Source: an uncultured Roseburia sp. (GTDB taxonomy: Bacteria > Bacillota > Clostridia > Lachnospirales > Lachnospiraceae). From it: a stretch of DNA of 39,028 nucleotides. Position numbers and translations under genes: made by a program. Below are positions 1 to 6,470 of the stretch, one piece after another (the stretch's first letter is position 1; every line of letters begins with the position of its first letter). The DNA lies in contig CALWHT010000048.1 of the NCBI GenBank assembly GCA_944380515.1, positions 1 through 39,028 of the forward strand. The letters run 5' to 3'. A model generated the notes under the pieces. The model made no database searches. It had not been told where the DNA came from and saw only the letters and a program-made list of their open reading frames with translations.

Positions 1-1859
1 CCCTTGGCAAATGAACCCTGTGTGTAGACGCCGGTGATGCCGTCCCGCGCCGTTCCGTCCCCGCTGACGCGCTCGCGCATCGCGGTCGTCTGCATGTCGT
101 AATAGCACTCTTCATAATACCCGGGCAAACGGTAACCGCTTCCGATAAAACCGCCGAGACGCGGCGTGCGGCTGGTCTCTGCAACTGTAGTCACGGTCGT
201 GTCTGTCAGGATGTTGCCGACCTCGCCGGCCGCGTAGCAGTTGATATACGCGCTTCCGCTGACAGTCCGAATCGTTCCGTTGGCATCAATCGTCATATCT
301 CTTGCGCAGTTGCTTTCATCATAACCAACAAAACCGCCCAAATCCGTCCCCGCGTAATCCATTCCGACCATGGCCGTGGAATAGCAGTTTTTGAATACGG
401 CATTTCCTCCCCTGAACTGATTTGCACTTACATGTCCTCCCGCAATATACCCTGCAAAGCCGCCGATTCTCTTCGTTCCTTCCACGACACCAGATGTATA
501 ACAATTTTCAAAATAAGAATTGACAGAGATTACGTGATTCTCGTCATAATAGTATCCGGCATAGCTTATTGCAGTTCCCACCTGTCCTGCAATTACCCTT
601 CCCACGAAGGCACCGGTCTGTTCGTCTCCGTACATAACGTTATTCGTATAGCAGCCGCGGATAATAACACCCGCCACACAGGAAAACATCCCTCCGGAAT
701 CCGCAGCGTTTCCCGCTGAGACGGAAAATACCTCGCTGTCTATCGAATAACAATCCTCTGCCATAGCACAGGAAATTCCGGTATTTAAAAATGCCTCCGG
801 TATCGTCGGAAATGCACTGTTATATGCTGCCGGCGTTGCACCTATGCTGCTATATGACATTCGAAACGCCGCGGAAAATCCTCCCACATGAGATGTACCG
901 CGGATATAGCAGTCTTCCGTAGAACAGTTTTTGACAAACGCATTACGCCTAACATTTGTACATCCTATAAGCCCCCCTGCGTACTCTCCGTTTCTATGCA
1001 CATATCCCTCTCTGGCATGTACGTTGTACAGATAACCGTTGCCTGAACCAATCAAACATCCGTACATGATACCCGCACCAACATTGCCTCCGGCACTCAC
1101 ATCATTTTGCGACTGGCATAAAACTATGGAGGACTGAAAATTCAGATTTTTTACCACCAGATAACATTGTACAGAGCCAAAAAAACCTGCTGACTCCTTG
1201 CTTCCCGATGCAAATGACCGCATGTTGTAAATGGTATGCCCGTTTCCTTCCAGATAAACCCATCGTCCGCTGCCTGTATCTATTGGCGTCCAATTCTGCT
1301 CCTGACCGTTCAGGTTGATATCATTGGTCAGATTAATCTTAACATTTGCGCTTCCAAGCTGTGACATGACATATTTCAATTCCCGCGCATTACTGACGTT
1401 ATATTCCCGGTAGGTCACATTTTGGGAGGTACTCTGCGTCGTGCCGTCGCTTCCCCTGACGTAGGTGTCACTGTATTCATACGTATTCGTCGTATAGCTC
1501 ACGCTGGAAGACCCGCCGTCCCATGCCGTAATGCCCCGCGCTGCAAGCACCTGATTGTCTACCCAGTTAAAGTAATCATTTCCCGGGGCGACCTGCCAGC
1601 CGCCGGAACTCAGCATGGTGTTTACCTGCTCCGGAGTCCGGTAAGTAAACGCTTCGTCTGTCCCGTCCGCTTTCTCCAATATGTCATTTTGAATTTCCAG
1701 CCACCGTGCCTCCTGAAATTCATTGATGGAATCGTATTTTGCCACGCCGCTGCCCGCGGCAAAGACCTCCATTGGAGCAGCCTGTAATAAGAGCGTAAAT
1801 ACCAGCAACAGGACTGCAGTCATTCGAATCCCCCGTCCCACTCGTTGCAGCATTCCCAT
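1..1859 (-). CDS. Secreted GLUG-repeat surface protein, 3' end outside the window
   Basis: The frame is open from 1859 to the left edge, at least 619 residues. Translation by hand gives a signal peptide (hydrophobic core TAVLLLVFTLLLQAA, likely cleavage after MEVFA), a unique region, then repeats with the GLUG signature: AGGLIGC, GGFAGYIAGG, LGGFVGYDES and LGGFIGSGY, each near an NCY or ECYYD motif. GLUG proteins are extracellular and often wall-anchored or adhesive in gut Firmicutes; the anchor would lie beyond the edge. A class B sortase gene sits directly upstream and could process it (inference). The first in-frame ATG (1859) has no normal ribosome site. The strong site belongs to an ATG at 1908, separated by a G11 run that puts it out of frame. 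Function beyond surface location is unknown. Confidence 0.8.
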   Translation of the reverse strand, partial: MGMLQRVGRGIRMTAVLLLVFTLLLQAAPMEVFAAGSGVAKYDSINEFQEARWLEIQNDILEKADGTDEAFTYRTPEQVNTMLSSGGWQVAPGNDYFNWVDNQVLAARGITAWDGGSSSVSYTTNTYEYSDTYVRGSDGTTQSTSQNVTYREYNVSNARELKYVMSQLGSANVKINLTNDINLNGQEQNWTPIDTGSGRWVYLEGNGHTIYNMRSFASGSKESAGFFGSVQCYLVVKNLNFQSSIVLCQSQNDVSAGGNVGAGIMYGCLIGSGNGYLYNVHAREGYVHRNGEYAGGLIGCTNVRRNAFVKNCSTEDCYIRGTSHVGGFSAAFRMSYSSIGATPAAYNSAFPTIPEAFLNTGISCAMAEDCYSIDSEVFSVSAGNAADSGGMFSCVAGVIIRGCYTNNVMYGDEQTGAFVGRVIAGQVGTAISYAGYYYDENHVISVNSYFENCYTSGVVEGTKRIGGFAGYIAGGHVSANQFRGGNAVFKNCYSTAMVGMDYAGTDLGGFVGYDESNCARDMTIDANGTIRTVSGSAYINCYAAGEVGNILTDTTVTTVAETSRTPRLGGFIGSGYRLPGYYEECYYDMQTTAMRERVSGDGTARDGITGVYTQGSFAK

Positions 1860-1860
1860 G

Positions 1861-1908
1861 TTACTTTTTCCCCCCCCCCCAGAACAAATGTTTGTTATTT
1901 TTTCTCAT
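1861..1908 (-). other. Short leader frame of the GLUG gene, closed by the G11 run
   Basis: ATG at 1908 is preceded by AAGGAGG ten bases upstream, the best ribosome site in this gap. As given, the frame reads MRKNNKHLFWGGGKK and stops at TAA (1863-1861). Only one base separates this stop from the ATG at 1859 of the GLUG protein. With one G fewer the frame would read MRKNNKHLFWGGGKSNMGML and run straight into the signal peptide, giving it a basic N-terminus. I therefore read this as the true 5' end of the GLUG gene in an out-of-frame state. Confidence 0.7.
1870..1880 (-). repeat. G11 homopolymer, candidate phase-variation tract
   Basis: Eleven C on the plus strand (G on the coding strand) lie between codon 10 of the 1908 frame and the signal peptide. 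Ten or thirteen G would join the frames; eleven gives an early TAA; twelve gives a TGA shortly after the join. Long G runs near the 5' end of surface genes are the classic substrate of slipped-strand phase variation. A sequencing length error cannot be excluded. Confidence 0.8.
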
Positions 1909-1918
1909 TCGACCTGTT

Positions 1919-1925
1919 CCTCCTT
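1919..1925 (-). promoter_or_regulatory. Ribosome binding site for the ATG at 1908
   Basis: AAGGAGG on the minus strand, ten bases before ATG 1908. It is far stronger than anything before ATG 1859, where only the G run and AAAAAG precede the start. It decides that the natural start is upstream of the G run. Confidence 0.65.
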
Positions 1926-1997: not shown

Positions 1998-2819
1998 TTA
2001 TCTTTCAAGTTCCTCTGTCAGTACTCCGATAATTAACAGACGGCTGTCGCTGTCATTGCTCATACAGGTAGAAAGCGTAATCAGGCGGCTGTCCGTCGTA
2101 ACCGGCACTTCCTCCCTGATATTCCCTTCCTGCTCCGAAAGGGACTCCAAAAACGCCTCATAATCCCCCTCGTCCTCAAAATCATAGGTCGCCATGATAT
2201 GACGGTCATCATAGACCGCCTGCCTCGCAATCTCATAGACCAGACTTTTTTCTGGCGTCACAACATAGATGTACGGGTGCTCCTCAAAAAACTCCGCATC
2301 CATAAATTCCCGCAGCGAACCAAACATGGTACGGTTTTTCATGCTGTGGCCGTATACCACGGTGTTGGAATCGGTAAAATCCCCGACATTACAGGGCTCT
2401 ATGTAAATCGAACCTGGCAGCCCGGCCACACCCTCTATCGTATGGTTCAAATAATACGAATCATGCATATCCGAAGTATCCGCGTTCCGCAGGATGGGAT
2501 AATCAACCTCTGTCCCCGGCACATAAATCCATGCGCACACATCCGTATTCGTCTCCCATAGCTTCTCAAAATCTACGGACGGAATCTCCGCCTCATCATA
2601 CGACTGCTGCCCCGCTTCCGTCTCTTCCGCTTCTGTTACCTCCATACCCTCAATACTCTGTTCCTTTATCTCCTCATAGACGCCCTGGGCATGTACATTT
2701 TTATACGTTTGCCAGCCCGCACGGCCAAGACAAAACAGCATGACAAGAATTAACAGAACAGAGACATACACTCTGCGTTTTTCGTCTCTTTTTCTTCGTT
2801 CCCTCTTCATTTTTTCCAT
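1998..2819 (-). CDS. srtB: Class B sortase
   Basis: The 273-residue product has a short basic N-terminus, one membrane anchor (about residues 17-33), an acidic linker (50-80) and a sortase domain from about 83. The catalytic set is visible: His158 in VVYGHSMKN, Cys252 in ITLSTC and Arg260 in SDSRLLI. The TLSTC context, the long region before the Cys and the N-terminal anchor fit class B. Sortases cleave a C-terminal sorting signal and join the protein to peptidoglycan or a pilus on the outer face of the membrane. AAGGA precedes the ATG by five bases. The GLUG surface gene follows 90-138 bases downstream on the same strand, with no terminator seen between, so it is the likely substrate (inference). 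Confidence 0.92.
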   Translation of the reverse strand: MEKMKRERRKRDEKRRVYVSVLLILVMLFCLGRAGWQTYKNVHAQGVYEEIKEQSIEGMEVTEAEETEAGQQSYDEAEIPSVDFEKLWETNTDVCAWIYVPGTEVDYPILRNADTSDMHDSYYLNHTIEGVAGLPGSIYIEPCNVGDFTDSNTVVYGHSMKNRTMFGSLREFMDAEFFEEHPYIYVVTPEKSLVYEIARQAVYDDRHIMATYDFEDEGDYEAFLESLSEQEGNIREEVPVTTDSRLITLSTCMSNDSDSRLLIIGVLTEELER

Positions 2820-3049: not shown

Positions 3050-3412
3050 TTATCCGTCTAATTTCTTATTCAATTTCTTATCAAAACTAATCACTTCGGC
3101 TCCGGCGACACGATGGTATGCAATCAGAATGCAGTCTACAAAATCAAGCGAAGTTGCCGCATACTCCATTAGTGCTTCTACCATAATTTCCTGATTTTCT
3201 ATGGCGACCTCGTCCATAAAATCAATCAATGTATTTGAAATCTCTTTTCGTTCAACTTTATATACGCCGTTTAAAACATATACAACTTCCGCAATAACTT
3301 CCGCCAATGTATACGCCCCCGCTTCCACCGCTTTTCGGGCATCCTGTGATAACTGCGGATGGTCTCCCAGTAAATATCGCAGTATCACATTGGCATCAAT
3401 CAGTTTTTTCAT
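3050..3412 (-). CDS. PIN-domain toxin ribonuclease of a type II toxin-antitoxin pair
   Basis: The 120-residue protein starts at MKKLIDANVILRYLLGDHP. PIN-domain acidic residues are visible: Asp6 in LIDAN, Glu42 before VVYVL, Asp93 in DFVDCILIA and Asp111 in ISFDKKL. PIN toxins of the VapC type are Mg-dependent ribonucleases that cut specific RNAs when freed from the antitoxin. The start codon lies inside the antitoxin gene (17-base overlap), with only a weak GGTGG site, so translation is probably coupled. A longer frame reaching 3475 merely reads through the antitoxin in another phase. The RNA target is unknown. Pairing a PIN toxin with a RelB/DinJ-like antitoxin is a mixed combination, seen in several families. 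Confidence 0.88.
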   Translation of the reverse strand: MKKLIDANVILRYLLGDHPQLSQDARKAVEAGAYTLAEVIAEVVYVLNGVYKVERKEISNTLIDFMDEVAIENQEIMVEALMEYAATSLDFVDCILIAYHRVAGAEVISFDKKLNKKLDG

Positions 3413-3668
3413 GTTTTTCCACCAACGCCCTTTCCATCGCTCCGGCTTCCTGCTCCCGCAGTCCCATATCCGCATACTTTGAAAGTCGACCGTAGGTATT
3501 TTTCCTGTTCGCTGTCATAACAAACGGCATACCGTTTTCCTGTACACTTTGCTTCGCAAAAATTCTCACTGCTTCTGCAAGAGAAGTTCCCATCTCCCGA
3601 TATAATGCCTCTGCCTGTTCCTTTAAATCTGCATCCATCCGAACCTGTAAGGTTGCTTCTTTTGCCAT
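3396..3668 (-). CDS. RelB/DinJ-family antitoxin
   Basis: The 90-residue protein begins MAKEATLQVRMDADLKEQAE, a ribbon-helix-helix N-terminus typical of RelB/DinJ antitoxins, and carries the family motif near residue 50 (ENGMPFVM). Such antitoxins bind their own promoter and neutralise the toxin with a flexible C-terminal tail; here the tail is charged (ERALVEKHEKTD). AAGGAGG eight bases before ATG 3668 fixes this start over an upstream in-frame codon at 3704. It precedes and overlaps the PIN gene, the usual order. Direct repeats upstream are candidate operator sites. Confidence 0.88.
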   Translation of the reverse strand: MAKEATLQVRMDADLKEQAEALYREMGTSLAEAVRIFAKQSVQENGMPFVMTANRKNTYGRLSKYADMGLREQEAGAMERALVEKHEKTD

Positions 3669-3692
3669 AGCAATCGCCTCCTTTTTGTAATA

Positions 3693-3729
3693 CAATCGTA
3701 TCACATTCTATAGATTTTAGCAATCGTAT
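3693..3729. repeat. Direct repeats at the toxin-antitoxin promoter, candidate operator
   Basis: CAATCGTAT occurs at 3693-3701 and exactly again at 3721-3729, 28 bases apart, just upstream of the antitoxin start. On the minus strand a weak promoter (TTGCTA, 17 bases, TACGAT) uses parts of both repeats. Ribbon-helix-helix antitoxins usually bind paired short repeats, so this is a reasonable autoregulation site (inference). Confidence 0.4.
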
Positions 3730-5000: not shown

Positions 5001-6398
5001 CTACCACTCGAATTTTTTTGCGAAATAAGCGTCCAGCTCTTCGATTTTCACTCTCTCCTGCTCCATCGTATCGCGGTCACGCACCGTCACCGCCCCGTCG
5101 TTTTCCGACTCAAAATCGTAGGTCACACAGAACGGCGTACCGATTTCATCCTGTCTTCTGTAGCGCTTTCCGATATTTCCCCTGTCGTCAAACTCGCAGT
5201 TGTATTTCCGGGAAAGCTGCGCGAAAATCTTCTCCGCTCCCTCACTGAGCTTCTTTGAGAGCGGAAGCACGCCAATCTTCACCGGGGCGAGCGCCGGATG
5301 GAAATGCAGCACCGTTCTCATATCCGGCTTTTCCTCCGTCCCGATATTCTCCTCGTCGTATGCGGCACAGAGGAAAGCGAGTACAACGCGGTCAGCGCCG
5401 AGGGACGGCTCAATGACGTAAGGAACGTAGCGCTCGTTTTTCTCATCGTCAAAATAGCTCAAATCCTGTCCGGAGGTTTCCTGATGGCGGGTCAGGTCGT
5501 AATCGGTTCTGTCCGCGATGCCCCACAGCTCGCCCCAGCCGAACGGGAATAAAAATTCAATATCCGTCGTTCCCTTGCTGTAGAAGGCAAGCTCCGCCGG
5601 GTCATGGTCGCGCAGGCGCATTTCCTCCTCCTTGATGCCGAGGGTCAGCAGCCAGTCGCGGCAGAAGCCTCTCCAGTACTGGAACCATTCCAAATCCGTT
5701 CCCGGTTCGCAGAAAAATTCCAGCTCCATCTGCTCAAACTCTCTGGTGCGGAAGGTAAAGTTGCCCGGCGTAATCTCGTTGCGGAAGGACTTTCCAATCT
5801 GTCCGATGCCGAACGGGATTTTCTTGCGGGAGGTTCTCTGTACATTCTTAAAGTTTACAAAAATACCCTGTGCGGTTTCCGGGCGCAGATAAACCGTATT
5901 CTTCGCATCCTCGGTTACGCCCTGGAAGGTTTTAAACATCAGGTTGAATTGACGGATATCGGTAAAATTGTGCTTGCCGCAGGTCGGGCAGGGAATCTGA
6001 TGCTCCTCGATAAACGCCTTCATTTCCTCCTGTGACCAACCGTCCACGGAGCCGTCAAGCTCCAGATTATGTTCCTCCGCAAAATCCTCGATCAGCTTAT
6101 CCGCGCGGAAACGCTCGTGACATTCCTTACAGTCCATCAGCGGGTCGGAAAATCCGCCGAGATGCCCGGAAGCAACCCAGGTCTGCGGGTTCATCAATAT
6201 GGCGCAGTCCACACCGACGTTGTAGGGATTCTCCTGAATAAACTTCTGCCACCAGGCCCTTTTGACATTATTCTTAAGCTCTACACCGAGATTGCCGTAA
6301 TCCCAGGTATTTGCAAGACCTCCGTAAATTTCGGAGCCGGGATATACAAACCCTCTGGACTTTGCCAGCGCTACAATTTTATCCATTGACTTTTCCAT
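5001..6398 (-). CDS. glyS: Glycyl-tRNA synthetase, single-chain alpha2 type
   Basis: The 465-residue class II synthetase charges tRNA-Gly with glycine in the cytoplasm. Recognisable parts are [18 protein letters not shown] near the N-terminus, a zinc-ribbon-like insertion ([13 protein letters not shown]), [12 protein letters not shown], motif 2 ([20 protein letters not shown]) and motif 3 ([11 protein letters not shown]), with the anticodon-binding domain after it. This is the eukaryote/archaea-like dimeric form rather than GlyQ plus GlyS. GTGAGGA stands eight bases before ATG 6398, which rules out the upstream in-frame ATG at 6428. It sits downstream of recO and a lipoprotein gene on the same strand. 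No T-box fits in the 72-base gap upstream. Confidence 0.97.
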
Positions 6399-6470
6399 AA
6401 AAAATTCCTCACCTTCTTCTATTTTCATCCGCCAAACTGCCCCGGGCGGAAAATAACCTTATCTGCCGTA

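What the first reader, a model, noticed from the sequence alone, without database searches (positions are those of the whole stretch)
1861..1925. G11 tract places a sortase-linked surface protein under apparent slipped-strand phase control
The strong ribosome site and ATG 1908 are separated from the GLUG protein's signal peptide by eleven G. As given, the frame stops at once. With ten G it would read MRKNNKHLFWGGGKSN and continue into the signal peptide, giving a normal basic N-terminus. Twelve G is also off. One in three lengths is on, the hallmark of a contingency locus. I know of no description of this locus. The chief alternative is a length error in the homopolymer.
Basis: partly seen in the sequence, partly recalled or inferred. 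Interest (0 to 1): 0.85.

Follow-up and report, generated by a model that had tools for sequence, protein, structure and literature searches.

The report
Poly-G switch before surface protein gene
A run of eleven G's sits between the start codon and the export signal of a large surface-protein gene, and two sister genes in the same bacterium carry runs of other lengths at the same spot, so copying slips probably turn these proteins on and off; this is a known kind of switch in a new gene family.

Summary
A pure G11 run (window 1870-1880, minus strand) separates a Shine-Dalgarno/ATG (1908) from the signal peptide of a large surface-protein gene beside a class B sortase. As assembled, the leader frame ends at TAA 1863-1861.

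The genome (3.07 Mb) has seven G runs of 8 or more. Three sit at this same place in three paralogs: window G11 (off), C32 G13 (off), C16 G9 (on, 1912-aa ORF). This argues against a chance or isolated homopolymer error.

Elsewhere in the family, poly-G lies in promoter spacers beside the -10 box (23 of 299 genomes, 35 sites; reversed control 0) and after SD+ATG leaders (42 of 397 genomes against 15 reversed).

Best reading: slipped-strand phase variation of a three-gene surface-protein set, like the Bifidobacterium breve pilus switch (PMC9187656).

Main caveat: an in-frame inner ATG (1859) follows the TAA by one base, and the G run could serve as its ribosome site. "Off" may mean "low".

No reads or second isolates were available, so switching itself is inferred.

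The parts
1870..1880 (-). G11 tract (C11 on + strand)
   Evidence: only G/C run longer than 6 in the window
1919..1925 (-). Shine-Dalgarno AAGGAGG for the leader ATG
   Evidence: anti-SD duplex -11.5 kcal/mol
1861..1908 (-). leader frame: ATG 1908 through the tract to TAA 1863-1861 (15 codons and stop; off as assembled)
   Evidence: SD+ATG at a similar place in all three paralogs
3..1859 (-). surface-protein frame from inner ATG 1859 (signal peptide, repeats with GG[FL][VIA]G), 619 codons, runs off the contig
1998..2819 (-). class B sortase immediately upstream, same strand
   Evidence: Pfam Sortase; TIGR03064 163 bits, cut-off 153.75
5001..6428 (-). class II tRNA synthetase (glycyl type by its G003 counterpart's Pfam domains), upstream of the sortase here and in G041 and G003

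Best explanation
The G tract is a slipped-strand contingency switch. Ribosomes start at the SD/ATG 1908 and read a nine-codon leader into the tract. In one length class in three the leader is in frame with the signal peptide and a large sortase-type surface protein is made. In the other two it is not, and the protein is absent or made weakly from the inner ATG 1859. Three paralogs (window, C32, C16) carry the same switch at different lengths, so clonal cells would show different subsets of the three proteins. Shown: tract, frames, paralogs, sortase neighbour. Inferred: length change during growth, expression from ATG 1908, cell-wall anchoring, and a role in adhesion or in avoiding immunity or phages.
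For: Three paralogs with pure G9/G11/G13 at the same site, 76-80% protein identity over the first 619 residues. Each has SD+ATG, the ATG starting 28-34 nt before the tract; about 6% of 60-nt stretches of the window's minus strand show such a pair. C16 is in frame: one 1912-aa ORF with a signal peptide, a region like pilus ancillary protein 1 (residues 1656-1768, far below that model's full-length cut-off) and a C-terminal SPKTYDSG + hydrophobic + RRK tail. The leader-tract-signal-peptide design recurs in unrelated genes of other genera (L103 on; L147, L149 off). In L147 no ATG/GTG/TTG, and in L149 none before residue 16 inside the core, lies between tract and hydrophobic core. Poly-G in promoter spacers of the family: 35 sites, reversed control 0. 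Another tract gene of this genome (C16:36117, G10) has a counterpart in sister genome G041 that also carries a G run there (85-90% DNA identity). Published precedent with measured slippage in B. breve (PMC9187656).
Against: No reads, second isolate or proteome. The inner ATG 1859 follows the off-frame stop by one base and has strong SD-like pairing from the G run (-13.5 against -11.5 kcal/mol). Two of three paralogs are out of frame, and contig C21, which continues one of them, has an in-frame TAG where C16 has W. None of the 61 other genomes of the genus matched the protein at E <= 0.001, so no orthologous tract could be compared. In the family survey leader-type genes are not richer in secretion signals than background (3 of 17 against 63 of 255), and 8 of 20 leader sites in frame is near the one third expected without any selection.
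Confidence: 0.66

Rival explanations
1. Volume control rather than on/off: the true start is the inner ATG 1859, and the G run is its ribosome site (or the short leader ends at TAA and ribosomes restart one base later). Tract length then tunes or modestly lowers translation.
For: G run to anti-SD duplex -13.5 (window) and -14.4 (C32, C16) kcal/mol; AAAAAGTAACATGGGA identical in all three paralogs. The signal peptide from ATG 1859 looks complete and basic.
Against: The upstream SD+ATG is kept in all three paralogs, and the C16 and C32 leaders align without gaps over 30 nt. Similar leaders elsewhere have no usable inner start (L147, L149).
Confidence: 0.2
2. Decaying gene family: the out-of-frame tracts are ordinary frameshifts in genes on the way out.
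For: 2 of 3 copies out of frame; TAG in contig C21; sister genome G041 keeps only the last codons of the gene between sortase and PPDK, apparently after a deletion; no match in the other 61 genomes of the genus.
Against: All three copies keep a pure G run of 9 or more, SD+ATG, and a frame that is open as far as their contigs reach (C16 wholly). Loss in relatives also fits dispensable contingency genes.
Confidence: 0.08
3. Assembly or sequencing length error at the homopolymer.
For: C48, C32 and C21 share exact 127-nt ends, which suggests a short-read assembly. Some metagenome poly-G in the genus looks like artefact: an Illumina-adapter-like sequence (recalled) beside a tract in G052, and tracts at contig ends in G041 and G061.
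Against: Three separate loci in a 99.85% complete genome carry 9, 11 and 13 G with real homologous flanks. An error of one base would not remove the tract or the design.
Confidence: 0.06

Closest known systems
Bifidobacterium breve UCC2003 sortase-dependent pilus G-tract switch (bbr_0113, bbr_1889; PMC9187656; abstract, introduction and two results sections read)
   Same: G tract after a short SD-started ORF at the 5' part of a sortase-type surface gene; out of frame in the published genome; Gram-positive; two such loci in the genome
   Different: Other organism and protein family. In the window the tract lies before the signal peptide, and an inner in-frame ATG abuts the off-frame stop; three dispersed paralogs share the switch; the sortase gene is upstream of the tract. 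In B. breve slippage and pilus expression were measured; here they are not.
Promoter-spacer contingency loci (Haemophilus influenzae fimbriae, as cited in the introduction of PMC9187656; Neisseria examples recalled)
   Same: Repeat in the -35/-10 spacer changes spacing; pattern matches of this kind seen in other genomes of the genus and family
   Different: The window locus itself is a translational, not a promoter, tract
Mycoplasma agalactiae gsmA (cited in PMC9187656) and Campylobacter jejuni cgtB (PMC6437147, passages) G tracts
   Same: Intragenic G-tract frame switching of surface determinants
   Different: Unrelated genes and organisms
Homopolymeric tracts as a general regulatory mechanism (PMC2831843, passages only)
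   Same: Frame switching by homopolymers in coding sequence
   Different: The section heading seen concerns poly(A)/poly(T) tracts of up to 7 bases; Firmicutes, Clostridium and poly-G gave no match in that text

Membership tests
Slipped-strand (homopolymer) contingency locus | Long pure homopolymer where length changes the reading frame or promoter spacing | tested here: met
   G11 between SD/ATG and signal peptide; frames
Slipped-strand (homopolymer) contingency locus | Tract length differs among homologous copies | tested here: met
   9, 11 and 13 in three paralogs; paralogs, not alleles of one locus
Slipped-strand (homopolymer) contingency locus | Length varies within a clonal population | not testable with these tools
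   no reads, one genome per species
Slipped-strand (homopolymer) contingency locus | Expression follows tract length | not testable with these tools
   needs reporter or proteomics
Sortase-anchored surface protein | N-terminal signal peptide | tested here: met
   seen directly; no signal-peptide predictor was available
Sortase-anchored surface protein | C-terminal sorting signal, hydrophobic stretch, basic tail | tested here: inconclusive
   C16 ends SPKTYDSG-hydrophobic-RRK; C52, the window gene's probable 3' end by synteny, encodes SPKTYDRG. Not canonical LPXTG; recognition by this sortase is inferred
Sortase-anchored surface protein | Sortase encoded nearby | tested here: met
   class B sortase 1998-2819, next to the window copy; the genes checked beside C32 and C16 were not sortases
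GLUG-motif protein | Match to the GLUG family model | tested here: not met
   no GLUG match at E up to 0.1 for the window part or up to 0.01 for C16; GG[FL][VIA]G repeats seen only by eye

The most novel reading that the evidence does not exclude
A large bacterial family (probably Lachnospiraceae; inferred, not shown) uses poly-G contingency loci widely. The tracts lie in promoter spacers against the -10 box and in 5' leaders of surface and envelope genes, so that secreted and surface proteins, in one species a sortase too, switch stochastically. The window is one of a three-gene surface set with independent switches, in which the tract also serves as the ribosome site of an inner start, giving on, low and off states.
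Probability: 0.55. Interest if true: 0.8.

Novelty: new member of a known kind. Interest (0 to 1): 0.63.

Why it matters
Phase variation known in gut commensals is mainly DNA inversion (Bacteroides; recalled) plus the Bifidobacterium pilus tract. If poly-G switches are common in this large family, which I take to be gut-type Clostridia by inference only, isogenic populations would be mixtures of surface types. Single assemblies would misreport surface genes as broken, and the states could be read from tract lengths in existing sequencing reads.

Tried and rejected
Relatives of the protein: genus 1 of 62 genomes, the own one; family 7 of 397 at E <= 0.001, the six others distant partial matches; genome contigs one 33% relative with a sortase-like ORF upstream. 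No G or C run of 7 or more in the seven stretches held around these relatives (L054 is cut by its contig end). Plasmids, phages and viral contigs gave no relative. A palindrome GAACNNNNGTTC (LexA-box-like, recalled) before the tract in C32, C16 and L067 was not pursued; the window copy has one mismatch. AlphaFold2 model: mean pLDDT 46.5, too poor to interpret. Its Foldseek top hit, 3n6z (titled putative IgA1 protease, E 1.9e-4), and L. reuteri SRRP (E 0.05) suggest only a beta-helix. Promoter scan around the sortase and leader: only 9-of-12 matches.

Limits of the surveys. The promoter pattern itself demands 0-2 bases between G run and -10 and bounds the spacer, so those features are partly by construction; the reversed control is the test. 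The leader classification is loose: of 55 sites, 23 had no long ORF after the tract and 12 were internal to ORFs, and one 'leader' (L141) has a stop in its leader. The own-genome C58 site was not classified. The survey of G runs of 11 or more (20 of 62 genomes) includes artefacts, and not all its tracts were inspected. In G041 the counterpart of the C16:36117 gene is split between two contigs at the G run (C252 ends in G14, C74 starts shortly before G11), so its true length there is unknown.

Full report
What is there. The window is contig C48 of a 3.07-Mb, 99.85% complete genome in 66 contigs. On the minus strand a class B sortase gene (2819-1998; TIGR03064 163 bits, cut-off 153.75) is followed after about 70 nt by AAGGAGG (1925-1919) and ATG 1908, then nine codons, a T and G11 (1880-1870). 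AAAAAG with TAA (1863-1861), one C and an in-frame ATG (1859) come next; that ATG opens a 619-codon frame running off the contig. The leader frame as assembled stops at that TAA.

More than chance. Runs of 8 or more G on either strand occur at seven places in the genome. Three are at the same site in three paralogs: C48 G11, C32 G13 and C16 G9. The paralogs are 76-80% identical to the window copy over 619 residues. Upstream they differ, yet each has an SD and an ATG starting 28-34 nt before the tract; such a pair occurs in about 6% of 60-nt stretches of the window's minus strand. The C32 and C16 leaders align without gaps over 30 nt. Judged by its own ATG, C16 is in frame and C32 and C48 are not.

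The protein. C16 gives the whole product: 1912 aa with a signal peptide and repeats with GG[FL][VIA]G, a pullulanase X25 domain and DUF7601, a region like pilus ancillary protein 1 (NF033396 37.5 bits, far below its cut-off of 600) and a C-terminal SPKTYDSG-hydrophobic-basic tail. The window gene's 3' end is most likely on contig C52, because C52 joins a matching C-terminus to the PPDK gene that follows the sortase in sister genome G041. C48 and C32 both end in the 127 nt that start C21, so the middle part was probably collapsed in assembly. C21 has an in-frame TAG where C16 has W and by elimination probably continues C32. Pfam GLUG was not found.

The neighbourhood. G041 (same genus) has the tRNA synthetase 99%, the next membrane protein 95%, the PIN protein 95% and the sortase 87% identical in the same order. 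After the sortase it keeps only the last codons of the surface gene and its 3' flank, 92% identical to C52, then PPDK: apparently a deletion. In G003, a one-contig genome of the genus, a sortase 48% identical also follows the synthetase (95%) and lies under a promoter-like site with G13 in a 21-nt spacer (TTGACA-N8-G13-TACAAT). The same locus is thus associated with a poly-G element in another position.

The family. Each pattern search has a built-in control, the pattern read backwards. TTGAC-N5-16-G8+-N0-2-TANAAT: genus 9 of 62 genomes, 10 sites, control 0; family 23 of 299 genomes in 23 genera, 35 sites, control 0. The own genome has none. In 34 of the 35 family sites the G run touches the -10 hexamer, and spacers are 14-20 nt; the pattern allowed only 0-2 bases there and bounded the spacer. 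Loci were held for 40 of the 45 sites and a gene was called after 37 of them. Of these 37, 25 have a crude secretion signal, against 63 of 255 other SD-preceded ORFs in the stretches held (Fisher p 5e-7); the rule is lenient, hence the high background. Leader pattern GGAG-N4-14-ATG-N8-36-G9: 42 of 397 genomes, against 15 of 397 reversed (my count of nonzero control rows). Of 55 sites examined, 20 have a long frame that begins at the leader (three are the own paralogs), 12 are internal to ORFs and 23 have no long frame. Of the 20, 8 are in frame as assembled, near the third expected for random lengths. Of the 17 in other genomes only 3 have a secretion signal after the tract (L103, L147, L149), no more than background. 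Others are two acyltransferases, a hexapeptide transferase, an MFS protein and a methyltransferase. In L147 no ATG/GTG/TTG precedes the hydrophobic core, and in L149 the first lies inside it, so translation through the tract seems required there. A second tract gene of the own genome (C16:36117, G10, XRE- and CheR/PAS-like by eye) also has a G run at this place in G041, where two contigs meet it (85% and 90% DNA identity).

Mechanism. Most likely, slipped-strand change of the G run during replication moves the leader in and out of frame with the signal peptide. Shown: tract, frames, paralogs, sortase. Inferred: switching, start at ATG 1908, anchoring. Against a clean on/off: the off frame in both C48 and C32 ends at TAA one base before the in-frame ATG, and the G run pairs with the anti-SD at -13.5 to -14.4 kcal/mol against -9.6 to -13.0 for the upstream sites. 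Low expression in the off state is plausible.

Known or new. The closest described system is the G tract in B. breve sortase-dependent pilus genes, with measured slippage and in-vivo enrichment (PMC9187656; abstract, introduction, two results sections). Nine searches of the open-access library (two of them aimed at single known papers) showed no report of poly-G switching in Lachnospiraceae or related Clostridia. One search was unselective: 4,142 papers, 15 listed. Passages of the three likeliest listings concern Campylobacter and chicken microbiota (PMC6437147), Bacteroides capsules (PMC12413058) and restriction systems (PMC10696588). Subscription papers are not held. The 2025 review PMC11868660 (passages) mentions Clostridioides inversions and has no match for poly-G. 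The window locus is a new member of a known kind. The promoter form in the family is the more interesting lead.

Noticed in passing
genome contig C16:36117-36126 (L034 6118-6127): G10 run in a gene with XRE- and CheR/PAS-like sequence (named by eye, no family search). In sister genome G041 the 5' half (L153, 85%) ends in G14 at a contig end and the 3' half (L070, 90%) begins at G11: probably a second switch, in a signalling protein.
   Followed up: partly
genome contig C50:71517-71525 (L037): G9 run between an SD-like sequence and the ATG of an MFS transporter gene (Pfam MFS_1): length would change ribosome-site spacing.
   Followed up: no
L164 5259-5271 (G003): G13 in the 21-nt spacer of a promoter-like site before a sortase gene that follows the same tRNA synthetase as in the window.
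   Followed up: partly
L121, L123 (G004, G021): Look-alike small secreted proteins (MKKKLLTAVLS...) in two species of the genus, both after poly-G spacer promoters of nearly the same sequence.
   Followed up: no
L036 1839-1841 (contig C21): In-frame TAG in a paralog piece where the C16 copy has tryptophan.
   Followed up: partly
L229 6055-6105 (G041): Last codons of the surface gene directly after the sortase stop, apparently left by a deletion.
   Followed up: yes
window 3050-3704, minus: PIN-domain gene with a small upstream ORF, possibly a toxin-antitoxin pair (partner not searched).
   Followed up: no
C32, C16 and L067 leaders: GAACNNNNGTTC palindrome before the G run, like a Gram-positive LexA box (recalled).
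   Followed up: no
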